NCBI RefSeq assembly: GCF_009389715.1
Contig: NC_052394.1
Location: 23,562,899 to 23,626,898, forward strand
Source: Phoenix dactylifera
Taxonomy: Eukaryota > Streptophyta > Magnoliopsida > Arecales > Arecaceae
Reading direction: 5' to 3'
Length of the DNA: 64,000 nucleotides
Every line of letters starts with the position of its first letter. Position 1 is the first letter of the stretch. Below are positions 10,501-52,879 of the stretch, in pieces. The notes under the pieces are model-generated. The model had not been told where the DNA came from, did not search any database, and saw only the letters and a list, made by a program, of their open reading frames with translations. Position numbers and translations under genes: made by a program.

Positions 10501-12090
10501 GTCAAAGTCTACCTCATGAAGCAACATTTAAGCCTGTGAAAAAATTGAGTAAATTAAATGCACTTCTCTCAACTTTTTTAGACACTTCACATCACAAATT
10601 CAACCCGAATTTTCCAGATGTGGCACAATTATGAGTGGAGTTTTTTTGACGATATAAAAACTGTCGCTGAAATTTCGCCCATGACATGATACTCATTCCA
10701 TAATGAGTAGCAAACACGTTCATCTCAATTTGTTTTCTCTTACAAAACAAGCTGGACATATTCCTTCTAATCATATGGGAATATCATAATATCAAGCTCC
10801 TGGTAAAGATTACCACCACTAATCTAACAAAGAAAAAGATTATCACGACTAATGCTAGCTAATTAACAAGAGCATTCTTTTTCAAGAAAAATAACCTAAA
10901 GCTACTGACCAGCATTTACAGGTTCTCGCAAAATCATGGCCTGATTTCAGGAATATCAAATCAGCCCTAGCTTAAACAAATCAAAAGTAGGAGAACAGGA
11001 GTAAGACAAACAGTCACAGATAAGAAATACTTCATTGATCTGAAAGAACTATGCTTGGGCTGAGCAGTAGCATCACCGACACCATAAAAGATAAAAATCT
11101 TCCATCTTCAAAATAAGCAAGCAAAGATTATATCAAGTAATGATAGCTATAACCATGCCATAAGTTCACGACATGACCATGATCTCTTAACAGTAACAAG
11201 ATTCCACGAGTTGCAACCAAAATCTTCTGACATGAAAGAACACAGCCATTGTTTATGAATATATGCAACGCCTCGAGAAGATGGCATAAATGGATGAGAG
11301 AACTGAGACAAAGCAAGTCCTTTCATATGAATAGAGAACAGAAAAATAAAAGAACAAAAATCCAAGAAAGCAGGCGAAGTTGTTTCAAGAGCTAGACTCC
11401 CACCTCGTCAAGCATGGACACGAGTCTCGTTTTCTTCCACTGCTGCTCGGTCCCCGAGATCCGGCCCTCTACCTCTCCTCCAGCCAACCCCTCCATCTTA
11501 TGATGATCCAACGACGAAAGCTCCGGCGGATCGGCATCGAGGAGCATTCCCCCGCCACCACCACTTAGTCCTTGTCGACGTCCTGCGTCGCAAATCTCCT
11601 CTAGAATTTGCCGGGCGGGCTCGAGGAACCGGGACCGGTTCAGGACGGCGGCGTAGCCAGTGAAGGGCCCCGCCGGCCTCGGCGCGGGCCCGGCGGTGAA
11701 CTGGAGGTGGGGCAAAGAAGGCGGAGGAGGCTTGGAAGAAGAAGGGGAGGAGGCAAGGGACAAGGAGAAGCCCTGATGGCCCGAAAATTGGGTGGTTGGA
11801 GAGAAAGTATCGCTAGGGTTTGGAGAGTAGTAGGACAAGGAGGAGGAGGAGGAGGAGGATGGGAGGAAGGTGGTGAGAGAGTTGGGATCGTGGTGGAAGA
11901 AGAAGGAGGTAGGCGGCGGGGATTCCTCCGGTGGGAACCGGAGCTTCTCTCGCCGGCTGTATTGAGGCACGTGGTACGTCTGATGGTGGTAGTGGTAGAG
12001 CAGCTGCTCCGCTTCTCCGTCACCGCCGCCGTAGCCCTTCGCCGCCGACGACATCTTGTTGTTTCTTCGTTTTGGGTCGTATTCGTCCAC
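7535..12090 (-). CDS. BEL1-like TALE homeodomain transcription factor
   Basis: There are four exons: 12090-11404, 9425-9052, 8482-8422 (61 bp, typical of this family) and 8053-7535. All have GT-AG introns and matching phases, giving about 546 aa. BEL1-like proteins pair with KNOX proteins and regulate meristem and organ patterning. In order, the product has an N-terminal ZIBEL-like GFSLSLASS, a SKY-type segment ([13 protein letters not shown]), a BELL domain (about 218-283) split at [11 protein letters not shown], a TALE homeodomain (about 329-391, with PYP loop and WFINAR helix) and a C-terminal ZIBEL motif VSLTLGL. The usual last motif, GGxxLHD, is present in the DNA but one frame off: the read frame ends DTWRALPS, whereas the +1 frame continues [16 protein letters not shown] to a stop near 7437. 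This means either a real frameshift or a base-call error. A second in-frame ATG lies at 12054. The exact BLH orthologue is unknown. Confidence 0.9.
9426..11403 (-). other. Intron 1 of the BEL1-like gene
   Basis: This is a 1978-bp AT-rich intron between GAG|GTGGGA and TGTAG|GTCTATAG. No coding sequence or recognisable transposon was seen in it. Long first introns in BEL1-like genes can carry regulatory elements, but none could be identified here. Confidence 0.8.
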
Positions 12091-12099
12091 TCCTCTTTC

Positions 12100-14330
12100 T
12101 CTGCTTTAAAACGCTGGAGAGAGTGAAGGTGGAGAGAAGGGCTGTCCGTCACTTCCGCTTCTTTTTCTTTCGCTCTTCCTTTCTGCAAAGGGGGCAAGAA
12201 AGTGAGGGGGAAGCGTGAGCAGTGAAAGCGATAGGGGTATGGGGATTGGGGGAATCAGGTTATGATAAGAATTTAAAGTGGAGAAAGTTGATGGACGGAG
12301 AAAAGGGGTTGGGGTGGAGCATTGTTTTTTTTGGAAGGAACAGTCCTGGCGGTGGCTAACTTGTGCCGGTTGCTAGATTCTCTCAGTTACAGTGCATTTC
12401 ATGGTTTCTGCTCCTAGTTAGTTAAGATATTGTTTAATTATAAATGATGCTACAAAGAGCCGAGTAATGCAACGGTAACTCAGAAAAATTACTTGAAAAA
12501 AAGTCGTAAGTGCCGTGCACCATTCTCTTTGCTTCTCTAATTTCACACTCAGGCATTTTCCTGTTAATTTAATAAAAAATATTTAATTTATAAAAAAAAG
12601 TTATCAAAACATTTTTTTTGAGAAGCTAAAGCGGCATACTATAAAATATTTGTTAAGCTTTTAATAAAAAAAGAAAGAAATTCTATCCCATTTAAAAGTT
12701 TAAAAATATTTTTCAAAAAAAATTCTATAATTTCCAACCAATGAAAATAAATGTTTTTCATAATTTTTCTTTGCTATATATTTTTTATATAAAAAACTAT
12801 TTTTATTTTTAAAATAAATAATTAAATATAAAATATATTTTTTATTCTAAAAGAAAGGCGGTTAGAAATCCTTACGGTCATGGACCTGCTATTGGAAGGC
12901 AATGACGCTGACGCCTGAAACGCTGGTGCAGTAGAACACCGATACAGCGATTCGCACACGTTACTTGCACCGTTGGAGGATCACAGCCTTTGGCTGCTTA
13001 ATAATTAAGGTGGCCAGCCGGGTACCTTTACTGATTGTGCTGGTGGGACCTGGTACGAACGAAACGTTACATCAGACCGTAGCTACGCCGGGACCCACAT
13101 CAAATTTTTTTTACTATTTAACATGCATCAGATGGAAATAGACCAACGGTAGGGAATAAAGAGATGGACATGTTCCATCGTTGCGTGTACGTCTACAGAT
13201 TGTGATGATTACGGCCAGATTTGGGGAACGGAGACGGCTCGTTCATATTACAGAGAGGTCTATTAAATTGTCATAAGGCATCATTATCCACGTGTCGAGA
13301 TCCAATACAGGAAATCGGCACTGGGTTTTACTGAGGAATAATTAGATCTAGCCTTTGTCCACTGTGGAAAAGGGAGTCCGGTGACGTCGCCTTTTGCCCC
13401 TTTACGTCCGGAGCTCATCAGAAGCCTGGCTTTGCTTGCTTTCAAGAGAGACAGGAAGAATACCGTAGATGGAGATGCCTTCGTTTTAGGTTTACACTTG
13501 TTTTTTTTTAGTCTTTTAATTGGGGTTTGATTGCTATGTTGGTGTAAAAGAATAGCAACTCTCCAACGCCTGCGGATCTTTTGCTTGAGATGGAGGACGA
13601 CGGCCGGCCGAGTTCCAGTACATGCACGAATATCAAAGCAGCGGCTCATTTGGTTGCTGTGCGTCTCCTGGGTGTCCGGGTGTCAGCTTTACAGGATGTA
13701 GGACGGATTCTTCTTTATAATTTCGGACAAACTTGAGTATACATATAATATGCTAATGGATTGTGGATTTTTTTTTGAAATTTGACTTGAATCCTGATGA
13801 ATCTTTGGCTAGTCCAAACATCATTTCCATAGCAGAAATTTTATTTATATAATGTATAAAGGAAAACTAATAATGAAACTTTTTTACTTTAGATTCCTTC
13901 TATTATCTTCTTTTTCACACTTTATTTTGACACTTGGTTAACAATGCCCTCTTTTTATCTGTATTTCATTTTCATTTTTCAGACTACATGACAATGAGGA
14001 ATCAGCTACTATTGCCCCTGGATTTCGAATCCTATTATGTCATGTATATCTATTACCTTATAATAACTTTTACATAATTAAAATAGAAGTTAGTATTTGA
14101 CATTTTGCATACCTTAAAAAGATGATTTTAATTGAAACCTATATACCTACAGAAAAAAAAAGTTTTGTGAACAAGGATAAAATCTATTATTGGTTGATAT
14201 AATGGATTTTTTGTTGCTAGTGTTTTAGTCTTGAAAATACCATTAAAACATATACCTCGGTGGTCAAAGCCTCTTGGTTCCAAAATGAGAGGGCTTATGA
14301 TTTTGGGCTTAAGTGCTATTGATCCACAAT
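12100..14330. other. Promoter-side intergenic region of the BEL1-like gene
   Basis: The region begins as a CT/GA-rich presumed 5' UTR and then becomes strongly AT-rich (about 12540-12860, with long A and T runs). Beyond this there is ordinary mixed-composition DNA. No gene, tRNA or clear transposon was recognised. Confidence 0.45.
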
Positions 14331-17628: not shown

Positions 17629-20135
17629 CTATACAGTGGAGACATCTGAAGACATCCCAGATTCCCCGTCCATCTTCTTCAGGGAAGTTAGGGCCTTAGG
17701 GGAGCCATTTTTTCTCTGCACAGTCTTGTAAGAGTACCTGCAAGCTAAGTATACGTAGCCACAGAGGCTTACTGCATCTATTACAGCAAGCAACCAATAG
17801 AAAAGATCGAGGCGACTCTTGTTCAAGTCCTTGGCAAACCAGCCTGCCCTCCCTCCCTTCTCAGTCAAATGGTCCGCAGCAGTGATCAAGAGACTGCTGA
17901 GGAAGTTGGAGGCCCCTATCACGCTCAAATAGAAGGCTATTCCCAGACTCCTCATGTTGTCAGGCACTTGATCGTAGAAATATTCTTGCAAGCCCACGAG
18001 AGCGAACCCATCACCCACGCCCAGGATCGTAAACTGAGGGGCTAACCAGAAGACGCTCATGGAGACTGCATTGGCTTGCTCCCCCTGGGCCGCCTTCAGC
18101 CTCTTGCTTTCCACGATGGCTGCAACGATCATCGCCAAGACCGAGAACACCATGCCAATTCCGATCCTTCGAAGGATGCTGATGCCCCTCTCATCCCCTG
18201 TGGCTCGTCTCAGGAAGGGTACGAGGATTTTCTCATAGAAGCAAACGGAGATGATCATGCCCATGGCACCGAGGGAATATATAGAGGCTGGAGGGATTTC
18301 GAAGCTGCTGCCGCCTAGTCTTCGGTCCATTATGCTTCCTTGTTTGATGAAGAAGGTAGGGGCTTGTGCCACGCACATGCCAAACGGTAAGGAGACAAGC
18401 CAGATAGGGACCATGGAAAGGACCAATTTCGCCTCCTCGACTTGAGTTACCGTCGCTAGTCGCCATTGATTTAGCTCCTCGGCTGCCAAGGCCGACTCGT
18501 CCTCTGTGTGCTCGATTATGGCAGCTTTATCGAGAAATCTGAAATTTAATACTACCACCATAAATCCAAGTGAAAAATGATGATGGATAGATTTGCATAA
18601 ATGTCTAGAAGCCTTATGAGAAGTTATATAGAGTGGCAAAATAATCTGGTGTGCATGCGCTAAAAGAATAATTAATTAGTGAAACATCTGCAATCGATAT
18701 ATCAGGGACCTTACCTGAGCTGATTAGTGTGGGACAGAAGCCTCTTGTCGCTCTTTTGTGACTTAGGAACCTCGTGCAGTTCCCCAGCATCCGAAGGATG
18801 TGGAAGGTGTCTCTTGGCCACGGCTGCCACCAACACTCGTAACATGGGAGTCAGTGGGCTACCACTTGGTACTTGGTACCGATAGAATGGCTTCCCCAGG
18901 TAGAAGATCACCAGGCTGACGCCCATTACCGAGGTTAGCAAGATGTCAGCCGCACCCCAGCTCACCTTATCCTGGATATACACAACAACAGTGACCCCCA
19001 GCAGCAGCCCACAGCACAGCCCAAAGTTCCACCAGTTGAAGTAGGACATCTTCTTCTTCCTCTCCTCCGCATCATCGTCGTCAAATTGGTCCGCTCCGAA
19101 GCTCTCGAGCGATGGCTTATGCCCCCCTGTGCCTACAGAGATCAAATACATGGCCACAAGGAAGACGAGCTCATGAAGTCGCAACGATCTGTGGCAGGTC
19201 TCCGGGTTGCAGGGTTTCAAGCTCGGGACCAGTTGCGACAAAGTCAAGAGGATCAGGCCCTGGGAAAAAAGACATATTCCGATAGATTATCGTAGAATAA
19301 ATGCTTATATTCCAATAGATACTTCTTGACTAATGTGAAGTTTTATTTGCATTCGATATGTCTTGGTCTGCATCCAATGGTATTAGCAATGCAAATGCCG
19401 GGCCTGAACCAGCCCATGGTAAGCGTGAAGCGCATGGGGGTGGTTGAGAATTTCGGAATAGTGGGGGCTCATCATGGCTATCCACAACCACTCATGGTTG
19501 CTTTCTTTTCTTTGCGAAAGGAGGATCGGTTTCCGAATTCGCTTTTGTTTGCAACGTGGAAGTTGGAATATATCCCTGGTGCCTGACCACGCTACTACTG
19601 GCTGCCTTAGATGAATGGAAGCAGAAAAGGTTGCAGTCTCACCGCGAGATAGATGAGGGAGGAGAAGAGGACGGTGGAGAACCTCCCCAGGTAGGCGTCG
19701 GCGATGAACCCGCCGAGGAGCGGCATCATGGTGGTGACCCCTGACCAGTAGTTGACGTTCTTGGCCGCCGTCTTCACCTCCTGGTGCAGCACCTTGGTCA
19801 GGTATATGATGAGGTTGCTGTCCAGCCCAAAGTAGCTCAGCCTCTCGCTGAACTCTATCGCTGCATGAGAGAAACCGCACACACCTCAAAGGAATAGAAT
19901 AGAGCATCAAAGGAAAACTCAGGTGGTAATTAAGGACACTTCCTCTCGCGACCATCTGCGGGGCTTATGAATGATCGCTGTTACCTATGATGAAGAAGGA
20001 TGCTTTCCAAACACCAGTTGAGGCTCTGAGAGGCCGCCTCCCCTTGTGATCAACGGATGAGTCATGGACCCATTTCTTGTCGTCGACTTCTGACTCCAGT
20101 ACTCGCGCCTTCTTGTCAAGCCTACCTGGTTCCAT
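17629..20135 (-). CDS. NPF (NRT1/PTR family) proton-coupled transporter, NPF5-like
   Basis: There are four exons: 20135-19985, 19860-19643 (218 bp, the classic NPF exon 2), 19259-18715 and 18538-17629. All have GT-AG sites and consistent phases, giving 1824 nt or 607 aa, a normal NPF length. The product is a 12-helix MFS transporter importing nitrate, peptides or other small solutes with protons. The proton-coupling ExxER motif is EFSER at residues 53-57. Other family landmarks are YWSGVTTMMPLLGGFIAD, GTGGHKPSLESFGADQFD, the FNWWNFG helix, then LPFGMCVAQAPTFFIKQG and the late GVGDGFALVGLQEYFYDQVP. The sequence resembles NPF5.x, but the substrate is unknown. An in-frame ATG at 20276 would add 47 residues that do not look conserved, so 20135 was chosen. 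The gene appears intact. Confidence 0.93.
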
Positions 20136-24008: not shown

Positions 24009-27000
24009 ATGCATCTACGTAGTGGTCGTGTCGCATCTCATCTTGAGTCCCCCCTAGACATGGATTCCAAAATTGAAGCCCTATTAAAAGCTATCCATGA
24101 CACTAATACCCAAGTCCAAGCAAACAACGCCCAAATTCATGACCTAACCACAATGTCCACCCAGGTTAATACTCGACTCGATTCAATTGAGGCTTCAATT
24201 CAAAGGGTTATTGAATCCCAAAAGGTTAGTACTCCCCATTTACCGGGTCTTGATGAGGATGATACCCTAGAACAACTCCTAGAACAACACGGTTCGGTTC
24301 GGCAGGGCAACTTTGATCATAGGTCTGTTCCAGGTCACCATTATGCCTACCCTCGCCCTAGAGGACCTGGTCCCATTCCTCCTGTTGATAGAGGTCACCG
24401 ACATACCGTAGAATCTAGAGAGCCTCGTGACCCTGATGACGATGTAATGCGAGGCATTAGGGTTGAAGCCCCTACTTTCGATGGTCGTCTTGATCCGAAG
24501 GTCTTCTCCGATTGGCTACACGAAATGGATCATTTCTTTGAGTGGTACAATCTGTCGGAGGAGAAAAAGGTCCGATTCGCTAGAATGAAACTCCTTGGTC
24601 GAGCCAAATTGTTTTGGCAAAACACCGAACAACTGCTAGCCAGGAGACATCAACCTGCTATTACCGATTGGGTTGAGATGAAAGAAAAATTAAAAGAAAA
24701 ATACCTTCCATTAAGTTATCAATCTGACCTCTTAGATCGATGGAACAATTTAAGACAAGGTAGTCGCACAGCTACTGAATACATCGCCCAATTTGATGAA
24801 TTTATGATGCGTAGTAATGTAGCTGAAGATGAACGTATGATCTTGAGCCGATTTCGACGAGGCCTAAATGATGAGCTTAGGAAAGAACTTATCCTTCGTG
24901 AAGTGTCCACCTTAGACCAAGCCTATACATTTGTGCAAAATTATGAACAATTCTCCAAATCTATGTTTGCTAGGCGCCCTGACACCAGGCGGGTCCCCAC
25001 TAGTGCCCAACCATCTGGACCCAGACCCCCAGTCGGTTCTGTCCCTCCTAAACCCTTTTCTTCTCCACCTATCCAAAACCGGGATATTAAAGGCAAAGGA
25101 ATTTTAGGTGAACCTCCAAAACCAAGCTCACGAATTCAGTGCTTTAAATGCCAAGGGTTTGGTCATGTTGCCTCCCAATGTGCAAATCCGACTCTAGTTA
25201 TTGACACACATGAACAGAAGGATGACATAGATAATTTGGAGGAACAAATTTATGAGCCTAATTTAGATGATATTCACGATGTCGAAGACGAAACTGAGGA
25301 AGAATCACACACTTTAGGTTGTATCCGACCTACTCCCCGGATAATTGCCCACGAACCTGACCGATCCACTGTGAATGTAGTAAGGTGTGCAATTACCCAG
25401 CCTAAAGAGACTGATGACTGGAGACGAACCTCAATTTTCCACACTTACATTAAATGCGGCGAAAAAGACTGTAAAGTTATCATTGATAGCGGGAGCTGCA
25501 TTAATGCGATATCTTCCAGCATTGTCGCACGCTTGGGTCTGACTCCTGTGTCCCAACCTCACCCTTATAAGGTCTCCTGGATCGACACGTCGTCCATTCA
25601 CATTAAGGAACGGTGTCTTGTACCTATTCAAATCCTCTCTTATAAAGACACTGTCTGGTGTGACGTACTCCCAATGGACGTAGGTCATCTGATATTAGGT
25701 AGGCCTTGGTTGTTCGATCTCGATGTCACCATCTACGGTCGAACTAACTCTTGCTCCTTTGTATTCCAGGGTAAAAAGATTACGCTTAATCCTTTACGGC
25801 CCAAAACGCTAAATAAGAGTACAGACAAGAGTACATCAAAGGGGAAGGAACTGCATATCCTTAACCCCACGGAATTTGAGAGGAACGTCTTTAAGGACTC
25901 TCCGGTGTTTGCCCTGCTAGTTAAAGAATTTCAGCCACATCTTCAAAGCACATTATCGGCAGAATCCCTCGCTATTCTCGAGGAGTTCAAAGAAGTTTTT
26001 CCGGAAGACCTTCCAGATCATTTACCCCCTTTGCGTGATATTCAACACGCCATTGACCTAGTCCCGGGAGCTACCCTTCCTAACCTGCCCCATTATCGGA
26101 TGAACCCCTCTGATCATGCAGAGCTCCTAAAGCAAATTAACGAGCTCCTACAAAAGGGATTTATTCGGGAGAGTCTAAGTCCTTGTGCCGTACCTGCCCT
26201 TCTTACTCCAAAAAAAGATGGGACTTGGCGAATGTGTGTAGACAGTCGGGCTATTAATAGAATCACGGTCAAATACCGTTTTCCTATTCCCCGGCTCGAC
26301 GATATGCTGGATATGATGGCAGGTGCCTCGATTTTCTCCGAGATTGACTTAAAAAGTGGCTACCATCAAATCCGGATTCGTCCAGGAGATGAATGGAAGA
26401 CAGCCTTCAAGACAAAAGATGGCCTCTATGAGTGGCTGGTAATGCCTTTCGGCCTCTCAAACGCTCCAAGTACATTTATGCGAGTGATGACTCAAGTACT
26501 CCGACCTTTTATGGGCAAATTTTTAGTCGTGTACTTTGACGATATCCTTATTTATAGTCAAACTAAGGAGCAACATTTAGGCCATTTAAGGCAAGTTTGT
26601 ACGACTTTACGCAACGAGAGCCTCTATGCTAACCTTAAGAAGTGTTCATTTTTCACTACTCACGTAAACTTCTTAGGGTATATAGTCTCCTCTGAAGGTT
26701 TATCTGCTGATCCTGCGAAAATCACCGCAATTGTTGAATGGCCTGAACCTAAGAATATTACTGACATCCGTAGTTTTCACGGCCTGGCCACATTTTACCG
26801 TCGTTTCATTAAGGGCTTCAGTACACTTATGTCACCTATCACTGATTGTCTTAAACGAGGTGATTTTCGGTGGACACGCGCAGCCGCTAAAGCATTTAAT
26901 GACATTAAGACAAAAATGACGGAAGCGCCAGTTATGCGACTCCCTGATTTTAACAAAGTTTTTGAGGTGGAATGTGATGCATCTGGCTTAGGAATAGGTG

Positions 27001-28964
27001 GTGTGCTTAGTCAAGAACGTCATCCTATAGCCTATTTTAGTGAAAAGCTGAATGAGGCTAGACAAAGATATTCCACCTATGACAAGGAATTTTATGCCAT
27101 AGTCCAGGCCCTACGGTATTGGCGACATTATCTCCTTCCTAATGAATTTGTTCTCTATTCTGACCATGAAGCACTTCGTTTTCTTAATTCCCAGAAAAAA
27201 CTTAATCATCGACATGCCAAGTGGGTTCAGTTCCTCCAGGATTACACTTTTGTTCTCAAGCATATGTCCGGTGCTGCGAACAAAGCTGCTGATGCGTTAA
27301 GTCGTCGAGTAACTCTGTTGTCCGCCATGTCTGTTTCCCTCACCGGTTTTGATAGACTTAAGCTCGATTACTTGTCTTGCCCAGATTTTGGCCAACTCTA
27401 TAATGCCCTTGCTGATGGACAAGGACCTTTGATTGATGGTGTTTATCTACAAGACGGGTACTTGTTCAAAGCTTCCAAGCTCTGCATTCCGCGCACTTCT
27501 GTGCGCGATTTCTTGATATGGGAAGTACATGCCGGTGGTCTCTCTGGACATTTTGGCCGTGATAAGACCATAGAAGAAGTTGAACGTCAATTTTTTTGGC
27601 CAAGTTTAAAACGGGATGTTGCTAAAATTGTGGGACAGTGTCGCACGTGTCAACTAGCTAAGCACAAAAAACAAAATACTGGCCTATACACTCCATTACC
27701 TGTCCCAGATCGCCCTTGGCTTGACCTTAGTATCGACTTCGTACTCGGCCTTCCTCGCACATTTCGGAAACATGACTCCATTTTTGTGGTTGTGGATCGT
27801 TTTTCTAAAATGGCCCACTTCCTTCCTTGTTCCAAAACTTCTGATGCCTCTCGAGTAGCCAAGATATTTTTTGATGAGATTGTTAAGTTATACGGGTTAC
27901 CAAAAACCATTGTCTCTGATAGGGATGTCCGTTTCATGAGCTATTTTTGGAAAACCTTGTGGCATCTGGTTGGCACCAAACTTAAATTTTCTACGGCCTA
28001 TCATCCTCAAACCGATGGCCAAACCGAAGTCGTCAACCGAAGTCTAGGTAACCTTCTGCGTAGTCTAGTCGGGGATCACAATCGTAACTGGGATTCTATT
28101 CTGCCTGTCGCCCAATTTGCATATAATTCATCAGTCAATCGATCTATCGGGATGAGTCCATTCGAAGTGGTCCATGGTTATAAAGCTCGCAAACCTGTAG
28201 ATCTCCTACCTATGTCCCCCCATATTCGCATTTCTGAGTCTGCACATGCATTTGCACAGCACATTCATAATCTGCATCAGGAAATTAGCAAGCGCATTCA
28301 TATGAGTAATGCTCAATATAAGCTACAAGCTGATTCTCATAAGCGAGATAAATCATTTCAAACTGGGGATTATGTGATGATACGTATTCGGCCTGAGCGG
28401 TTTCCATCTGGAACCGTCAAGAAACTGCAGGCTCGTAGTGCTGGGCCCTTTCGGGTATTGCAACGCGTGGGTACTAATGCTTACGTTCTTGATCTTCCCT
28501 CTGATTTTGGTATTAGCTCCACTTTTAATATTGAGGATTTGGTTGCTTACAAGGGCCCCCTTTCTATTCCTACTGATCCTTTCGCTCCGCCATCACTTGA
28601 GCTTGATGATAATCCTCTTCTTGATTCCATCCCATCTCCGACCAATCTAACTTTACCACCAGCACAAAAAGAACAAATTGATGCCATTTTAGATGAGCAG
28701 ACTGTTTCTACCAGTGATGGGGGTGTTCAGCGTTTTCTGGTTCGTTGGCGAGGACGCCCGGAGTCTGATACTACATGGATTACCCGTGCGGAGTTACAGC
28801 GCATTGACCCAGATCTTTTGGAGTACTACCAGAGTCATTCGTCGGGGTCGACTTCTTCTTACCCGGGGGGAGTTGGTGCGGACACGAATACTGGACTGAT
28901 TATTGTGCGGGATTATGGTCGTCGCAGGAAGACGGTCCAGCCACTTTCATTGTGGCTGGATTGA
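24009..28964 (+). CDS. Chromovirus gag-pol polyprotein, 1651 aa
   Basis: One uninterrupted frame encodes, in order: Gag (core about residues 150-300), a CCHC zinc knuckle at about 378-391 (CFKCQGFGHVASQC), an aspartic protease with DSGS near 492, a reverse transcriptase with YFDDIL near 843, an RNase H with ECDAS near 987, an integrase with an HHCC finger (about 1175-1225) and D-D-E core (about 1242, 1303, 1340), and a C-terminal chromodomain-like segment (FLVRWRGRPESD) near 1575-1610. The last 30 residues are encoded by the 3' LTR. Gag and Pol are in one frame, so the proteins would be released by the element's own protease. The start ATG lies about 1.8 kb inside the element. Confidence 0.95.
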   Translation: MHLRSGRVASHLESPLDMDSKIEALLKAIHDTNTQVQANNAQIHDLTTMSTQVNTRLDSIEASIQRVIESQKVSTPHLPGLDEDDTLEQLLEQHGSVRQGNFDHRSVPGHHYAYPRPRGPGPIPPVDRGHRHTVESREPRDPDDDVMRGIRVEAPTFDGRLDPKVFSDWLHEMDHFFEWYNLSEEKKVRFARMKLLGRAKLFWQNTEQLLARRHQPAITDWVEMKEKLKEKYLPLSYQSDLLDRWNNLRQGSRTATEYIAQFDEFMMRSNVAEDERMILSRFRRGLNDELRKELILREVSTLDQAYTFVQNYEQFSKSMFARRPDTRRVPTSAQPSGPRPPVGSVPPKPFSSPPIQNRDIKGKGILGEPPKPSSRIQCFKCQGFGHVASQCANPTLVIDTHEQKDDIDNLEEQIYEPNLDDIHDVEDETEEESHTLGCIRPTPRIIAHEPDRSTVNVVRCAITQPKETDDWRRTSIFHTYIKCGEKDCKVIIDSGSCINAISSSIVARLGLTPVSQPHPYKVSWIDTSSIHIKERCLVPIQILSYKDTVWCDVLPMDVGHLILGRPWLFDLDVTIYGRTNSCSFVFQGKKITLNPLRPKTLNKSTDKSTSKGKELHILNPTEFERNVFKDSPVFALLVKEFQPHLQSTLSAESLAILEEFKEVFPEDLPDHLPPLRDIQHAIDLVPGATLPNLPHYRMNPSDHAELLKQINELLQKGFIRESLSPCAVPALLTPKKDGTWRMCVDSRAINRITVKYRFPIPRLDDMLDMMAGASIFSEIDLKSGYHQIRIRPGDEWKTAFKTKDGLYEWLVMPFGLSNAPSTFMRVMTQVLRPFMGKFLVVYFDDILIYSQTKEQHLGHLRQVCTTLRNESLYANLKKCSFFTTHVNFLGYIVSSEGLSADPAKITAIVEWPEPKNITDIRSFHGLATFYRRFIKGFSTLMSPITDCLKRGDFRWTRAAAKAFNDIKTKMTEAPVMRLPDFNKVFEVECDASGLGIGGVLSQERHPIAYFSEKLNEARQRYSTYDKEFYAIVQALRYWRHYLLPNEFVLYSDHEALRFLNSQKKLNHRHAKWVQFLQDYTFVLKHMSGAANKAADALSRRVTLLSAMSVSLTGFDRLKLDYLSCPDFGQLYNALADGQGPLIDGVYLQDGYLFKASKLCIPRTSVRDFLIWEVHAGGLSGHFGRDKTIEEVERQFFWPSLKRDVAKIVGQCRTCQLAKHKKQNTGLYTPLPVPDRPWLDLSIDFVLGLPRTFRKHDSIFVVVDRFSKMAHFLPCSKTSDASRVAKIFFDEIVKLYGLPKTIVSDRDVRFMSYFWKTLWHLVGTKLKFSTAYHPQTDGQTEVVNRSLGNLLRSLVGDHNRNWDSILPVAQFAYNSSVNRSIGMSPFEVVHGYKARKPVDLLPMSPHIRISESAHAFAQHIHNLHQEISKRIHMSNAQYKLQADSHKRDKSFQTGDYVMIRIRPERFPSGTVKKLQARSAGPFRVLQRVGTNAYVLDLPSDFGISSTFNIEDLVAYKGPLSIPTDPFAPPSLELDDNPLLDSIPSPTNLTLPPAQKEQIDAILDEQTVSTSDGGVQRFLVRWRGRPESDTTWITRAELQRIDPDLLEYYQSHSSGSTSSYPGGVGADTNTGLIIVRDYGRRRKTVQPLSLWLD
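28864..28872 (+). other. Polypurine tract of the chromovirus
   Basis: A GGGGGGAG purine run lies immediately before the 3' LTR and is embedded in the coding frame near its end. Confidence 0.85.
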
Positions 28965-33539: not shown

Positions 33540-35659
33540 CTAAGTAGAACAGCAAGCTCGCTTTACATTCCCTGAAGAATCAGCAACGTTGATAGTTGTT
33601 CCTTGAATGGGTGGTCCTGCTGTCCCTGCTGCCTCTTGAGCAGCAAGTGCCTTCTTGCTTATTATTTGGTAAATCTCTGTCAAAATATGCTGGAATGCCT
33701 TCTCAATGTTGAATGCTTCCAATGCTGAGGTCTCTAGAAAGGAAAGCCCCTCCTTCTCAGCCAATAGCCGGGCATCATCCTCTGAAACTGCTCGTAGGTG
33801 CTTCAAGTCGGACTTATTACCAGCCATCATAATGACAATGTTGGAATCGGCATGGTCTCTAAGTTCACGAAGCCATCTCTGTACATTGTCAAATGTTTGC
33901 CTCTTTGTTATGTCATAGACTAGGAGTGCTCCCACTGCACCTCTGTAATATGCACTGGTGATCGCACGGTACCTCTCTTGACCAGCAGTGTCCCATATCT
34001 GTGCCTTGATGGTTTTCCCTTCTATCTGTTCAGAATATCAAATTATTGCAGCACTGACAACTGCATCAATAAAGCAAGAAGTAGAAACTAAAGTATGATG
34101 GTTAAATAATCAGTTAACAGGGGAATTAATACCACTTTGAATTTAGGTTAAGAGACCCATTTCGTTGATGATGCATACTACAAAAGTAGTGAAAAACATA
34201 TTAACATGTAATTTAAAAAGAAGCATGCATCATGGCATTCCTTTAGGGAATACATACTCGTGTTACCATCCACAAGCATCAATTGCAACATAATTCACTA
34301 AAGGAAAAAGAAAAACATATTTCTTTTTATAAAATCTTTCAGGAAGATGGTTAGTATGAACTGAACAATGAAGATGTAAGAGGAGAATATGTTAGGTAGA
34401 AACATTAAGGTGACTCAGCAAACAATTAATGTTTAGCAGATTCATCCATCAGAAGAACAATTCTATTTATGGAGCAACTTGCACTTACAGAATAAACAAG
34501 TAAACAGAAACTTCTCCCTAGGCTATATGCCGAAAGTAAGGAAGTGGCTGGAATTGCCATTCTAATATGTTTTTAAACTCATAAGACCCTGAGTATTCTG
34601 AAAAAAAGGGAAAAACAAAGAGGCCATGACGCCATCCATCATTAAGTACTAACCTATAGAAACTAGTTTAAACTTTAGTTCGCCCCTTAAGGACTAGCAA
34701 AATGGCTCAAAGGACAGAAAACTAAATAAATCAGCAGGATACATATTTAGGAAACTTTGGTTCACTTCTTGACTAACTAATCAGCAAGATGTACAAGAAG
34801 AAAACTCACTTGAAATAATTGTTGGATTGGAAGAGAGAAGTGTTATTTTTGTTTCACCTAGGAAAAGTTCGAGCATCATTCTTTTCCCAGTCCTCAGATG
34901 TTCACAGCTACATCTACATATGTCTTATAGATTCATTGTCCTCCTACATGACTTGTGAATTCATCGCTGCTCCTCTGAATGACATGAATTGTGGATTTAG
35001 ACACATAAGGTAGACAAACTTAATCTTCTGTTATCCATGATAATTCTTACATAAATCGCAGAACCAATTCTTTACAATATGAATCTATTGGTGCAAAATT
35101 TACATGCAAAACACACGATGAAATACAACCTTCGATCTTGTAATGAGATTTACCATAGTAAAGAAACAAACCAAATGAAGTTGATAAATCACAGTACTGG
35201 ACGATCAAGAAGGACATAAACTTGATAAGCGTATTCAAATTTGAGATCGTGGCCGTGCTTATTCCTGTTGCATAACCAATAGAACGGAATTTTGCTTTTG
35301 CGCCTATAACAGATTCCTTCCCCTCGAATTCTTTATATATCCGAAGAAACCGAGAACGATCATTTCACCACAAAAAATAAACAGACCGACAAACAAATAA
35401 ACAAAATGAAGCAATAAAACCGAGTATACGCTGAAAAGGGCAAATAAATGAAATAAAGCAAGAACCCGAACAGAGATCGGAAACAGGTGCTGACCTGAAG
35501 AGTCCTGGTCGCGAATTCGACGCCGATGGTCGATTTAGACTCCAGACAAAACTCATTCCTGGTGAATCTCGACAGGATGTTCGATTTCCCCACGCCAGAA
35601 TCACCGATCAGCACGATCTTGAACAGGTAATCATACTCATGATCCACTCGATGCGCCAT
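33540..35659 (-). CDS. RABA2: RABA2-type (Rab11 class) small GTPase
   Basis: There are two exons: 35659-35495 (55 codons) and 34025-33540, separated by a 1469-bp GT-AG intron in phase 0, giving 216 aa, normal for the family. The product is a membrane-anchored GTPase of trans-Golgi and recycling endosome traffic, active in polar secretion and cell-plate formation in plants. The P-loop GDSGVGKS is at residues 19-26. Also present are the switch I segment STIGVEF, DTAGQE, NKSD, the ETSALE loop and a C-terminal CCST with two cysteines for geranylgeranylation. The start [19 protein letters not shown] and the [18 protein letters not shown] tail resemble Arabidopsis RABA2c/d from memory. The intron position, just after RTLQ, is usual for plant RABA genes. 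All key residues are present, so the gene looks functional. Confidence 0.95.
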
Positions 35660-37367: not shown

Positions 37368-40300
37368 ATGAAGAAGGAGGAGACGGTGAAGCTGATAAGC
37401 GCGGAGGGGTTCGAGTTCGTGATCGACAAGAAGGCCGCCATGGTCTCCCACACCATCCGCAACATGCTCACCTCCCCTGGTCTACCATCTCGTTTCTCGC
37501 TTCCATCTTGCTTTCCTTTTAGGTTTTCTCATTAAACGTCTAGTATATGGCAGGTGGCTTCGCGGAGACGCAGCTCGGAGAGGTGACGTTTCCGGAGATA
37601 AGCACCCCCATTCTGGAGAAGGTCTGCCAGTATTTCTACTGGTCCCTTCAATACGCCAGGTTCCTCTTCTCCCTCTTCCTTATCTTGATCGACACTTACT
37701 CCTTACCAAGTTGTGATTCGTTCCTTTTCTGGTGGATCTTTAAGGTCATCACACTAGACGTACCAGTCCGATTCCAAAATATTTGAATCAAGGAGGGCCA
37801 AATGTGTCTGTGCTTATCAGTTGTTGCAATCTGTCTTATCGGGGCATACATGTTAGCAATTTTAGAGATTATCCTTAGTGCAGGGACAGCTGGATAGAGA
37901 ATTGGTTTTGGATTCTTAGTGGCAATCCTTGTATGATCAGTTTCGCATCTAATTTTTGCTGAGAACCACCAGAACTTTTGTAGCATCTACTCCTCAAGAA
38001 ACAATGAGCTAAAATTTACAATAAAGTTGATTTTTTTTTTTTTTGATGATAAGTAACTTGAAGAATTACCTACATGTAATGTGCATTTTCCAGTTTCCTA
38101 ATCCAGTAGTTATATGGATAGGTTGTTGTTCTCATGCTGTTAGTATGCTGCTTGTAGAAACTTTCAGTGCTTGATTCTAAACTGTTAAAATTGTATGCCA
38201 TGGTTTGTTTGACAAGGCATGGGCTTTCTTTCCGGTAAGCCGGGAAGGCGATTGTGTTGATGACAAGTCGGGTATTGTATGAATAACCAATTCCAGTACG
38301 TTCTGGAGTCTCTAATTTCGGAATCCATGTTGTATTTCTCAGTTTTTGTGCATATGCCTTTATATTGGCCCTCCCAAAAGAAAAACCCTTTATAATGAAA
38401 AAGAAGGGTAGATGCAGGAGGATTGTCAGACAAGTCTAATAAGTAGAAAACCTTTACCCAAGACAAGATGTGCTTTGTAAGAACATCATTCAGTCATTTG
38501 CGTTCATTTTAAGTTTTGTGAATATATTGCATGTGGATCCTACTATAGAGAAGCTATCAGTTTCCAACGTAGTAGCTTGCGAGGTTTGGGCATTTGGCAA
38601 TAAAGCATCTGCAATGGATTAGTTAATATCCATCTTGTCAACCTTGATTTCCCATTCAAACTAAGGACATGTACAAATAATGAACTACAACCAGTGACAG
38701 AAGAGATCACAAATAGACTAATTTAAATTATTTGTTGAATCTACGGTTGTTCTGACTACTAAGCAGCATTCTCTTAATTAGGGTGAGGATGTGATTTATC
38801 AAATATAAGACAGAATCTTTCCCGTTGAACTTAAGGATTTTGTTAGCTTGAAGCTAACAAAGAAAATCCCCTCATGCTGAATGGCATCAGGAACAGGGTT
38901 AATCAATTTGTCCAGCATTGCATTCCAAAAGAGGAAAGGAGACAACTATCTGCTTCAGCAACTGATCTAAAGAGGGTTAGCATCTTGATGTTGTCAAATA
39001 CTGTTCAGAACTGATGGATAACATCCTAAGACCACCATCTCACATGACTACCTTGTTGATTGCTAATGTATCCAGGTTATTGTTCTGTCCTCTATTATTT
39101 ATCTCGAACAATGAGAGAATATTTGAAGATTGAGGTGTTATGCAGCTATTATTTTTCAAAACATTTTAGAATTCAGGCTCACACATGTTATATATCAAGA
39201 GCCTACTAGCTTCACTTCAGTTTCTTAAGGACTTCAGAGCTATAGGATTTGCCTAGTATGGATTTCAAGTGATGCTAGCTCCCATCAATGTAGTTAGGCA
39301 TTCCATCTTATGTGTTCTGTAAATATTTTTGAGGGGTAGATCTTATCAATAAAGAAATATGTAAGAAACTGTTTGATGGGGTTCAGTTCCCTAGCACTGG
39401 TATGACTGCATCAGGTATTTGCAAAAGTTATACATGAATCATGATGTTTAATTAAGGAAGCTATATAATCTATAAAAAGTATAATATATGACTTTTGATC
39501 AAAGTTTTTAAGGCAAGGAAGGATCTTGAAGAAATGATTGAGAAAAGCTTGAATGCTATTTAGAAAAAAAGTAAAAATTGTAACAATACGAGTCTTCACT
39601 TCATCGACGAATGATGGTATCTTGTATTTCTTCTACCTGAGAAGATAATCATCAAGGCTTATTATATGATGAGATATTACTTTTGTGTTAATAATTTGAT
39701 GCCACACTTGATGTGTTGGTTCAGATTGAATTTCGTGCTAGTTAATGCCCGGTTATTATAAGAAGTTTGACTCATTAATATTATATTTTGGTTTTGGATG
39801 AGTTCAAATTGATACTGTTGTATTATTGCCAAGATTAATGGCTCTTAAATTAGTTTTAGTGTAAGCTAGGTCGAAATCTCTTCCTGCAAGGCCCATACAG
39901 CCATTCAATACACAATGCTTTTCAAGATGAAACACCAAAAACAAAAGCTAACAAAGCCTTCCTTTCATGTATATTCTTGTTGCTGATATGTTTATAGACT
40001 AGACTTTATTGTTACAATTTGAATGCAACATACTTTTGTCGTCAGTTATGTTATTCTCCACCTCTTACACTTATTCATGCCTTTGAGGTGGAGAAAGACT
40101 GGTGGGTTAATCAATGTTTGCAATCCAAAGTGGGGAATTTCCACATTGTGGGACCATGTCTAGATCACTGGACTTTGCAGTTTTATATATTTAAAAGTAT
40201 GTATGTTTATGATGTAGTTTTGGTGCTTGTAGCTAGCAACCCTCGAGTGGATTATAAGGAGCGCTTTGTACACACATAAGCCACGTATACCTGTGCCAGA

Positions 40301-41349
40301 TATGCCACACCCAATGCTGTGGCTCCTATAGGGCTTGGGCACTATGTCTTTGTGTGACGTATGGTTTGTTTAGATGGTTTTCACCTACATATTAGGGTGT
40401 AAAGGGCAATGCTTAAAAAAAAAGAAACTGACCATGTGAAAGGATTCCCACCACCCCCTTCGCGTGCCCTGCACCCAGATATAATTAAAAAATTGAACTA
40501 TTTGAATTTCTCAGTGCTTGGAGGAACTCACAACTTATATCCTCTTAACTTTTCACCTCACAAGAGGCTTCAGAAAAATCTTAGTTCATTATTACTCTAA
40601 TAAAACTCGAATCTGCAAATAGTAGTGCGAGATGAGCAAATGCTTTATTCATGTATACAATGCACTTAAATCTGCTGTAGTTTCTGTGTTTGTCAGATTG
40701 TGCAGCATCTTGTTTATATTGCAAGAGAGTGATTTTTTAATATGCTCTGGCAAATAATGCTCATGCCTGATTTATGCACTTGTTTTTCTATCCATTCAAG
40801 CCGGTCATGCATGTTGAAAATCTTGTTAGAAATAGGAAAGGATAAATGAAGTTGGACGGTGAAAGGACAGACGGAATTGTGAATAAGAGCTTGTGACTTT
40901 ATTTATTGACTAAAGTGGACATCTAGCTAGATTATGTGTTCATCACAGAGATAATTTCCTCTCTTATCAATGGATGTGTTGGTTTTCCAAATTTACCACA
41001 TAAGTGGTGTACTGTATGTATGATTTCGGGTCTGTTTGTGCCAGAATTCTTGATTGTTTGTGTTACTGTAAAGGTTTAAACTGAATAAGAATTCAATGAA
41101 CTTCACTTTTTAAACTGGTATGACAAACGAGCAATGTCCTTGATCTTTATGCTTTGCCTCACACGCTTCTTCTCAGCTTAAAAAGCGACTAATTTTAAAG
41201 CCTTCTGTGCTTTCTTACTATTTCTGTTAAAATTATTCCTTAACCTCTTTTTTGTCTATGTTGTTGGCAGTGGAATGGAGACAGAGTTTCATATTGAACC
41301 TGAAATAACTTTGGAGTTGATGATGGCAGCTAATTATCTCCACACCTGA
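37368..41349 (+). CDS. ELC: Elongin-C (SKP1-like ubiquitin ligase adaptor)
   Basis: There are three exons: 37368-37479, 37554-37659 and 41271-41349, with GT-AG introns of 74 bp and about 3.6 kb, giving 297 nt or 98 aa, the usual plant length. Elongin-C has the SKP1/BTB fold and links substrate receptors to cullin ligases; in animals it also forms the Elongin transcription factor. Visible features are VKLISAEGFEFVIDKKAA, IRNMLTSPGG, EVTFPEIS, VCQYFYWSLQYASG, and then HIEPEITLELMMAANYLHT at the C-terminus. The ATG at 37368 begins MKKEETVKLIS, as in plant orthologues. An upstream GTG-initiated extension was ignored. The next gene on the same strand is RPN11, 983 bp beyond the stop codon. Confidence 0.94.
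37660..41270 (+). other. Long intron 2 of Elongin-C
   Basis: 3.6 kb of AT-rich intron with a 14-base T run near 38030. No internal gene or clear transposon was recognised. Confidence 0.75.
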
Positions 41350-42331
41350 GAGATCTCTATGGGTCTGCTATCTTGGGGCTCGTCTCTTGTTTGCACTGTT
41401 AGTCAATGTGCTCATGTATGTATACAGAGTCATTATGAAGTGGATTATGCGTTCTTTTGAGAAATGAAATTATAGTTTCGTGTAACAAACACTTATAGAT
41501 GGACGACTGTCTCAAGATTGGCTAGTTGTTTTGGTTGCGTTGCTTTTACATTTTGGAACATGGTGCCTTGGATCTGGACTTCAGCTTTTGATCAAGCTGC
41601 ATCATATTGTTCAACTTGTTATGAAGGATGGACAGAAACAAAAGATGCTATTTACTTCTGTGTTGTGGTGTGTGATGAAATCAATCATAACTCATCACGT
41701 TAAATGTATCATGCTGGACATGTTGGAGAAGGTCGAAACAAGGGGAAAATGCTAAATTTGTATACTTTGTATATGTCTGAAAGAAGAATGATCAGGTGTA
41801 AGACAGATCAAATCTTTATCATGGAACACATATAATGATTTCTCGATTTGGCCACATAAACTAGATTGTGCCATTTTGAAGAGAATCGTAGTCTCGAAGA
41901 AAAGAAAATCACAATCGACTTTTATTTATTTTTTATAACTTACTTTTATTTATATTTTTTATTATAATTAGGATTATGCCTTTTCTTTATGGTCAAGACA
42001 TCTTTCTCATGTTGGCTACGGAGGCAAGCGGTCAATGTGATCGATTTAATAAAACCAGTAAAAAAAAAAAAAACTTTTGGAGGCTTCGTTTCCGTCGATG
42101 AAATCAAATATCTCTTTTTTTCTAGTTAGTTCTCTATTATTCTTTTATATTAATTTGCTAGAAATATTTTGACCGTGGATCAAGAGGCGCGGGCCCAACC
42201 TTTAAGACTGGTACGGGTTGGACCGGGACGAGAAGAAGGCTTGGTGCTCGGAGCTGGAAGGCGGAGTTTCTTGCTTGGCGAGAGAAACCCAAAGCGGAGA
42301 GGAGAGGAACGCAAGGGAGAGGAAGGGCGGG
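41350..42331 (+). other. Elongin-C 3' UTR and RPN11 promoter region
   Basis: The first ~400 bp are the probable Elongin-C 3' UTR. The rest is AT-rich promoter turning purine- and GC-rich just before the RPN11 start. An A run lies at about 42059-42073. Confidence 0.45.
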
Positions 42332-45538
<3,207 letters not shown>

Positions 45539-51935: not shown

Positions 51936-52304
51936 TCACAAAGATTTCCAGGGACGGCAGTCGAGTTTGGTGCAGGTGGATTCCCAGGCGCTCCTGCACT
52001 CCCCTCCCACTCCGTCGCAGCACCGGCAGAGGAGGCCCAGCGACTCCAGCACCTTGACATGCCCTGAACCACGCCATGATTGAAAGACTCATTAGACTTT
52101 CATACCCATCCCTTCAAATACACATAATTAGACGGACACAGCATAAACAGGTAAAATTCTTCAGTAACTTTCAGAGAAGCTCTTACTCTCTTGTTTCCCC
52201 GAGGGCAGCGGCAGTGGCCTGGCTTCTGCAAACCCGGAGAGGTGAAGATATTGGATTGAAACCAGGAGCAGCAGGAAGAAGAAGGGAGCCCTTCGTGATT
52301 CCAT
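51936..52304 (-). CDS. Small secreted six-cysteine peptide, 81 aa
   Basis: There are two exons, 52304-52187 and 52063-51936, joined across a 123-bp GT-AG intron in phase 1 (A|GG), giving 246 nt and a stop. The N-terminus is a classic signal peptide (MESRRA followed by PFFFLLLLVSIQYLHLSGF, probable cleavage near AEA). A proline-rich linker (ARPLPLPSGK) follows, then a mature tail KVLESLGLLCRCCDG continuing GGECRSAWESTCTKLDCRPW. Six cysteines are spaced C-x-CC-x6-C-x7-C-x4-C, allowing three disulfides. I half-recall similar uncharacterised plant peptides with a CRCCDG...GGEC core but cannot name a family. It is probably extracellular; no function is assigned. The gene is convergent with the subtilase pseudogene on the plus strand. 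The individual exons are short and separate frames. Confidence 0.72.
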
Positions 52305-52342: not shown

Positions 52343-52349
52343 CTTTATA
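52343..52349 (-). promoter_or_regulatory. Putative TATA box of the small peptide gene
   Basis: On the minus strand TATAAAG lies 39 bp upstream of the ATG at 52304, implying a very short 5' UTR. GC-rich promoter sequence with GTGGGGCCCACC-like TCP-type sites lies further upstream (52540-52880). Confidence 0.5.
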
Positions 52350-52879
52350 CACTAGACGTGGACTCCATCTAGGTCTTGGTCCTCTTGGAGTTATTCTAAT
52401 TTCTGCACGATGTGAAATGATATCCGTATAAAATCTCAAGAAATTCGCAACCATCCTCCTTTTCCATGAACCGAGTCACCAACTTTATGGGTCTTTTCTA
52501 GATCGATGAGACAGAGGAGAGACAGCTCGCAAGGGAAGGATATCATTGGTCGTTTGATTGCTTAATGATGAAAACATGTTCCTGTCCCTTCTGAACTAAG
52601 TGGGGTCCTGTGGGGCTTCCGGAAGGGGTCCAGCCGGCGTTGCACGCGTCTACGCTTCTTTTAGGTCTCCCCCGTGAAGCAATGGGACCCACGCTCGTGG
52701 ACCAGGGCCGGGCCAGCTGTAATTGCAGGGAAATTTCCTGGTGCCTGTCGCTTGTGATTCGGTCCATTTCAGGGGGCGTATGGAAGGGTAGAGCTCAGCT
52801 GAGTCTTGGCCGGCAGCAAACAGCCTCCTTGTCCTTGGTGATATAATGTTCGACGAAACTAAAGTGGGGCCCACCGAAC

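What the first reader, a model, noticed from the sequence alone, without database searches (positions are those of the whole stretch)
51936..52304. Undescribed-looking small secreted six-cysteine peptide gene
Two short exons join cleanly (phase 1, consensus GT-AG, 123-bp intron). The 81-residue product has a strong signal peptide, a Pro-rich linker and a C-x-CC-x6-C-x7-C-x4-C tail. A TATA box sits 39 bp upstream of the ATG. Each exon alone looks like a chance frame, so automatic annotation could easily miss it. Plant cysteine-rich secreted peptides are often signals or antimicrobials, but this spacing does not match EPFL, defensin, LTP or snakin as I know them.
Basis: partly seen in the sequence, partly recalled or inferred. 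Interest (0 to 1): 0.72.

Follow-up and report, generated by a model that had tools for sequence, protein, structure and literature searches.

The report
Palm secreted six-cysteine peptide gene
This is a small plant gene, kept intact in three copies of a duplicated chromosome segment, that appears to encode a secreted six-cysteine peptide matching no family we could search, perhaps a cell-to-cell signal.

Summary
In detail: a two-exon gene on the minus strand (52304-52187, 123-bp GT-AG intron, 52063-51936) encodes an 81-residue precursor with a signal-peptide-like N-terminus and the tail C-x-CC-x6-C-x7-C-x4-C. It is not a chance frame. The host genome (773 Mb, probably date palm) holds two more copies, at C12:297386-297743 and C3:498970-499317, in syntenic segments beside Ras/Rab GTPase and RPN11 relatives. 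All three keep ATG, phase-1 intron, splice sites, stop and six cysteines; 49 of 77 ungapped codons keep their residue against 33.0 +/- 2.9 under random placement (0 of 20000). On C12 the neighbouring Rab copy has two stops and 2 of 6 RPN11 pieces give no match, yet the peptide gene is intact.

The window protein matched nothing in Pfam or the PDB, and string searches of open papers found no relative. Mature net charge is 0 to +3, so I favour an extracellular signal over a membrane-active antimicrobial, as inference. Conservation in other plants, expression and secretion could not be tested, so 'undescribed' is provisional.

The parts
52187..52304 (-). Exon 1 coding part: Met, hydrophobic signal-peptide-like stretch, AEA (probable cleavage) and the start of the RPLPLPSGKQE linker
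   Evidence: Read directly; coordinates; hydrophobic core peak KD 2.72 for residues 7-17; frame kept in both paralogues
52064..52186 (-). 123-bp phase-1 intron, GTAAGA...TTCAG
   Evidence: the same intron position and phase in the paralogues (109 and 119 bp)
51936..52063 (-). Exon 2 coding part with stop: VLESLGL segment and the six-cysteine domain ending PWKSL
   Evidence: six Cys codons kept in all three copies; 2 of the 6 codons differ silently, TGC/TGT
52344..52349 (-). TATA-box-like TATAAA, 39 bp before the ATG
   Evidence: TATA-like words start at -45 here, -48 (C12) and -56/-46 (C3). A transcription start about 30 bp downstream would leave a very short 5' UTR, so its role is uncertain
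52371..52386 (-). Conserved 16-bp upstream block AAGAGGACCAAGACCT
   Evidence: AAGAGGACCWAGACCT occurs 3 times in the whole genome, once upstream of each copy (the backward control pattern has 2 places), starting 82 bp before the window copy's ATG. Chosen from these three copies, so suggestive only

Best explanation
A functional gene for a small secreted cysteine-rich peptide, one of three paralogues kept after segmental or whole-genome duplication in a palm. The precursor enters the secretory pathway, signal peptidase cuts after AEA, three disulfides form, and a roughly 50-residue peptide is released to the apoplast. I think it most likely acts as an extracellular signal read by a cell-surface receptor. 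Shown: gene structure, paralogues, conservation of the protein beyond chance. Inferred: expression, secretion, cleavage site, disulfides, signalling role, receptor.
For: Two more copies in syntenic segments; ATG, GT-AG phase-1 intron, stop and six Cys kept in 3 of 3, with lengths 81, 82 and 77 aa. 49 of 77 codons residue-invariant, 0 of 20000 random placements reach this; random placement leaves all three copies stop-free in 3.8% and stop-free with six Cys in 0.01%. Window vs C3 copy: Ks 0.87, Ka 0.136, ratio 0.16. On C12 the Rab copy has two in-frame stops, 2 of 6 RPN11 pieces give no match and a third has a stop, while the peptide gene is intact. Upstream block at near-constant distance in 3 of 3. 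Low net charge of mature peptides (+3, 0, +1) and conserved non-cysteine residues (CCDGxGGEC, KLDCxPWK) fit a receptor-read ligand better than a membrane-active cationic peptide (inference).
Against: No transcript, protein or phenotype data, and no relative outside this genome was seen. Signalling rests on analogy. Variable sites by codon position (24, 17, 32) are not significantly skewed (p = 0.099). Window vs C12 ratio is 0.40, and 0.62 in the signal peptide; the damaged RPN11 copy gives 0.31 against the window's, so the C12 ratio alone proves little. The single-sequence fold of the 41-residue exon-2 part is only moderately confident (best pLDDT 68.7, worst of five models 38.2) and matches nothing in the PDB at E up to 10.
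Confidence: 0.6

Rival explanations
1. The same secreted peptide is a defence peptide (antimicrobial or inhibitor of foreign proteases or enzymes) and not a signal.
For: Small disulfide-rich secreted plant peptides are often defensive (passages seen in PMC8198727). The C12 paralogue has a weak sub-threshold match to the Toxin_7 model (E 0.04, 14.6 bits, cut-off 27).
Against: Mature net charge 0 to +3; no Pfam match for the window or C3 proteins; several non-cysteine loop residues are kept in all three copies, whereas defence peptides often vary there (recalled); only three copies found in the genome and no tandem expansion.
Confidence: 0.25
2. A structural or metal/redox-related secreted protein (cell-wall linked, or a CxCC metal-binding site) with no receptor.
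For: The C-x-C-C cluster could bind metal; conserved Trp and Pro residues could serve wall contacts. No direct test.
Against: Six cysteines, an even number, in a secreted-type protein favour disulfides (general knowledge); no metallothionein match in Pfam.
Confidence: 0.1
3. Not a functional gene: a chance spliced frame, or three decaying relics of a former gene.
For: No transcript evidence was available; the copies still share non-coding similarity (window-C12 intron 75%, upstream 200 bp 71%), so some likeness is simply recent descent.
Against: Intact frame, splice sites, stop and six Cys in 3 of 3 copies while neighbours on C12 decayed; 0 of 20000 simulations; window-C3 ratio 0.16 while identity in the upstream 200 bp is down to 51%.
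Confidence: 0.04

Closest known systems
Plant small secreted cysteine-rich peptides (CRPs) as a class
   Same: Short precursor, signal-peptide-like N-terminus, cysteine domain at the C-terminus, even number of cysteines
   Different: Cysteine spacing and sequence match no Pfam family for the window protein; six ways of writing parts of the spacing were found in no open paper
EPF/EPFL peptides
   Same: Small secreted plant peptides with six or eight C-terminal cysteines that act on cell-surface receptors (recalled)
   Different: No Pfam match; spacing differs and no C-x-C near the C-terminus (EPFL spacing recalled)
Tomato CRP_6C I and II (PMC10515272, passages)
   Same: Unclassified secreted plant peptides with six cysteines
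   Different: Their spacings, C-x3-C-x5-C-x5-C-x2-C-xn-C and C-x5-C-xn-C-x6-C-x4-6-C-x1-C (the first letter of the first pattern was cut off in the passage and is my reading), differ from C-x-CC-x6-C-x7-C-x4-C
Beta-ginkgotides (PMC11253845, passages)
   Same: Six cysteines with a CC pair followed by x6-C
   Different: Pattern C-x2-CC-x6-C-x2-CC: the first gap and the C-terminal half differ
MEG (maternally expressed gene) family, PF24153
   Same: Small secreted cysteine-rich plant peptides (recalled); one of only two Pfam families seen at E up to 10, and only with the C12 paralogue (E 6.4)
   Different: 7.5 bits against a cut-off of 27; not a match

Membership tests
Plant small secreted cysteine-rich peptide (class) | Short precursor with N-terminal hydrophobic signal peptide | tested here: met
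   81 aa; hydrophobic 11-mer peak 2.72 at residues 7-17, AEA before the mature part. SignalP itself was not available
Plant small secreted cysteine-rich peptide (class) | Conserved even-numbered C-terminal cysteines | tested here: met
   Six cysteines kept in 3 of 3 copies; the C3 copy has a seventh Cys inside its signal peptide
Plant small secreted cysteine-rich peptide (class) | Secreted and disulfide-bonded in the plant | not testable with these tools
   Needs apoplastic proteomics or a reporter fusion
EPF/EPFL | Match to the family profile | tested here: not met
   No Pfam family at E up to 10 for the window protein (HMMER filters drop most matches above about 0.1)
Plant defensin | Eight-cysteine motif CX{4,25}CX{2,12}CX{3,4}CX{3,17}CX{4,32}CXCX{1,6}C (PMC8198727 passage) | tested here: not met
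   Only six cysteines and no C-x-C near the end; no Pfam match
Non-specific lipid-transfer protein | Eight-cysteine motif (PMC8198727 passage) | tested here: not met
   Six cysteines; no Pfam match
Snakin/GASA | Twelve-cysteine GASA domain (recalled) | tested here: not met
   Six cysteines; no Pfam match
MEG (PF24153) | Score at or above the family cut-off | tested here: not met
   C12 paralogue 7.5 bits against 27; window and C3 proteins none
Toxin_7 (PF05980) | Score at or above the family cut-off | tested here: not met
   C12 paralogue 14.6 bits against 27; window and C3 proteins none

The most novel reading that the evidence does not exclude
The founding member of an undescribed plant peptide-hormone family with the signature VLESLGLxCxCCDGxGGEC-x7-C-x-KLDCxPWK and its own promoter element, kept in three copies since ancient duplication in palms, with a dedicated receptor still to be found.
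Probability: 0.3. Interest if true: 0.72.

Novelty: new variant of a known kind. Interest (0 to 1): 0.5.

Why it matters
Secreted peptides of this size are easily missed in genome annotation (said for tomato in PMC10515272, passage), and each true family is a candidate hormone or defence molecule with an unknown receptor. Here one genome gives three intact copies and a conserved upstream block, so RNA-seq of each copy and tests with folded peptide can be designed at once. It also shows that comparing duplicated segments within one genome can make a tiny spliced gene credible without transcripts.

Tried and rejected
Chance frame: rejected by the paralogues and simulation. More family members: a codon-level pattern of the CxCCDG core gave 7 places, of which 3 are the known copies; the frames of the other 4 were read by eye and none keeps the rest of the cysteine tail. 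A protein query gave only the same 3. More diverged members could be missed.

Relatives elsewhere: viral contigs (35 pattern stretches) and genome contigs (81 pattern stretches) hold no relative by tblastn, as expected for a plant gene; no plant collection was on hand, and the metagenome collection, whose cap is 0, was not tried. PDB by sequence: none; by a profile of the three copies: two hits with E 0.51 and 0.77, unrelated by name. Structure: the exon-2 part folded without an alignment gave three short strands at pLDDT 68.7 and no PDB match at E up to 10, so I make no fold claim.

Papers: string and motif searches found nothing relevant (no paper; one paper, whose passage is a lipid-transfer protein; three papers, MAVS/RIG-I by title). 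Topic searches were seen as listings, and passages were read in PMC4526923, PMC8198727, PMC11756074, PMC10515272 and PMC11253845; none of these passages shows this spacing. Sequences shown only in figures or supplements, and papers outside the library, were not searched. The bacterial-type promoter scan does not apply to a plant and is ignored.

Dating: Ks window-C12 is 0.44 for the peptide, 0.34 for Rab, 0.26 for RPN11 pieces against a published palm duplication peak of about 0.32 (PMC10787024 passages); window-C3 gives 0.87, 0.41 and 0.38, so whether the C3 segment is older is not settled.

Full report
What is there. On the minus strand the window holds ATG at 52304, exon 1 to 52187, a 123-bp intron (52186-52064, GTAAGA...TTCAG) and exon 2 from 52063 to the TGA ending at 51936.

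Host. The window lies in a genome of 773,078,369 bases in 2391 contigs. That is close to the 772.3 Mb given for date palm in PMC10673830 (passage); the identification is mine, by size and by recall of that assembly, and is not proven.

It is a gene. A DNA search of the host genome finds two more copies, C12:297386-297743 (77% identity) and C3:498970-499317 (71%). A protein query finds the same three places and no more. Each copy splices to a similar precursor, 82 residues (C12) and 77 (C3), with the same phase-1 intron, splice sites and stop; identity to the window protein is 70% and 75%. All six cysteines of the tail are kept in 3 of 3, with silent TGC/TGT differences at 2 of the 6 codons. 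Of 77 ungapped codons 49 encode one residue in all copies; when the 73 variable columns are placed at random the mean is 33.0 (sd 2.9), and 0 of 20000 trials reach 49. Only 3.8% of trials stay stop-free and 0.01% stay stop-free with six cysteines. Not all tests are strong: variable sites by codon position are 24, 17 and 32 (p = 0.099), and Ka/Ks is 0.40, 0.16 and 0.27 for window-C12, window-C3 and C12-C3.

Synteny and a natural control. Apart from repeat-like matches out of order, open frames of the window match the C12 and C3 segments in the same order: a Ras/Rab-type GTPase (window 33543-34037; Pfam Ras), an RPN11 proteasome gene (about 42.2-45.5 kb; JAB and RPN11_C matches) and the peptide gene; on C12 matches continue past the peptide gene. 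On C12 the Rab exon has two in-frame stops. Of six window pieces that I assign to RPN11 (starting 42206, 42614, 44330, 44680, 44978, 45341; the pieces at 42206 and 44680 by eye, and 44978 on a sub-threshold match), 2 (42206 and 42614) give no match in the 40 kb of C12 examined, 44330 has a stop within the conserved part, and 44978 has a seven-residue gap. Two further pieces (37544 and 41182, Elongin-C-like by eye, no Pfam match) match C3 but not C12. The peptide gene beside them is intact. Two of the C3 alignments (44330 and 44978) also pass through stops, at places that I read as intron or splice-site sequence, so I use only C12 as the control. The RPN11 pieces window-C12 give Ka/Ks 0.31, so a pairwise ratio alone does not separate live from damaged copies here; the intact frames are the stronger argument. 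Ks values window-C12 of 0.26 to 0.44 fit the palm-wide duplication peak near 0.32 reported in PMC10787024 (passages). The C3 segment gives 0.38 to 0.87, and its age is open.

Upstream region. TATA-like words start 45 to 56 bp before the ATG in all three copies. A 16-bp block, AAGAGGACCWAGACCT, occurs three times in the whole genome and each time upstream of one copy (the control, the pattern read backwards, has 2 places). It starts 82 bp before the ATG in the window; from the places I calculate 83 (C12) and 86 bp (C3). Identity of the upstream 200 bp window-C3 is 51%. I picked the block from these copies, and by my own rough reckoning, not from a call, a run of this kind is only mildly unlikely at that background, so it is a lead.

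What it probably does. The N-terminus has a hydrophobic core (peak 2.72 at residues 7-17) followed by AEA, a fitting cleavage site (SignalP not available). The mature part would be about 50 residues with net charge +3, 0 and +1 in the window, C12 and C3 copies (the window value was computed without the uncharged last residue). Low charge, conserved loop residues (CCDGxGGEC, KLDCxPWK) and a small copy number lead me to an extracellular signal read by a receptor; a defence peptide is the main rival. Expression, secretion, cleavage, disulfides and receptor are inferred.

Known or not. The window and C3 proteins match no Pfam family at E up to 10; the C12 paralogue has two sub-threshold matches, Toxin_7 (E 0.04) and MEG (E 6.4). 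By sequence the PDB gives nothing for the window protein and two weak hits, unrelated by name, for a profile, and a moderate-confidence model of the exon-2 part matches no PDB fold at E up to 10. Searches of open-access full text for sequence strings and for the spacing found nothing relevant. The tomato six-cysteine families in PMC10515272 and the ginkgotides and jasmintides in PMC11253845 have other spacings (passages). The review PMC11756074 lists CRP families (passages); I compared with them only through Pfam. Sequences in figures, supplements, papers outside the library and plant proteome databases were out of reach, and relatives annotated only as uncharacterised proteins in other plants would not surprise me.

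Verdict. The finding is right as a gene model. It is a new variant of a known kind, the plant secreted cysteine-rich peptides, with novelty provisional until plant genomes are searched.

Noticed in passing
window 24009-28964 (+): One uninterrupted 1651-residue open frame with Pfam gag, reverse transcriptase, RNase H, integrase zinc-binding and chromodomain matches: a chromodomain Gypsy-type LTR retrotransposon polyprotein, suggesting a fairly recent insertion.
   Followed up: partly
L017 / G000:C12:281721-282215: The syntenic copy of the window's Rab GTPase exon (33543-34037) has two in-frame stops: gene loss after duplication, next to a retained peptide gene.
   Followed up: partly
window 42206-45535 (+): RPN11 proteasome lid gene (JAB and RPN11_C Pfam matches on separate exons), with a well conserved copy on C3 and a partial one on C12.
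   Followed up: partly
window 37544-37783 and 41182-41346 (+): Two exons that look like Elongin C by eye (no Pfam match), conserved on C3 and unmatched in the C12 segment.
   Followed up: partly
window 17629-19247 (-): Peptide/nitrate transporter (PTR2) gene pieces; also a POX-domain (BELL-type) exon at 11395-12105 and a mitochondrial carrier piece at 2266-2607.
   Followed up: no
window 52371-52386 (-): The 16-bp block AAGAGGACCWAGACCT is found only upstream of the three peptide genes in the 773-Mb assembly.
   Followed up: yes
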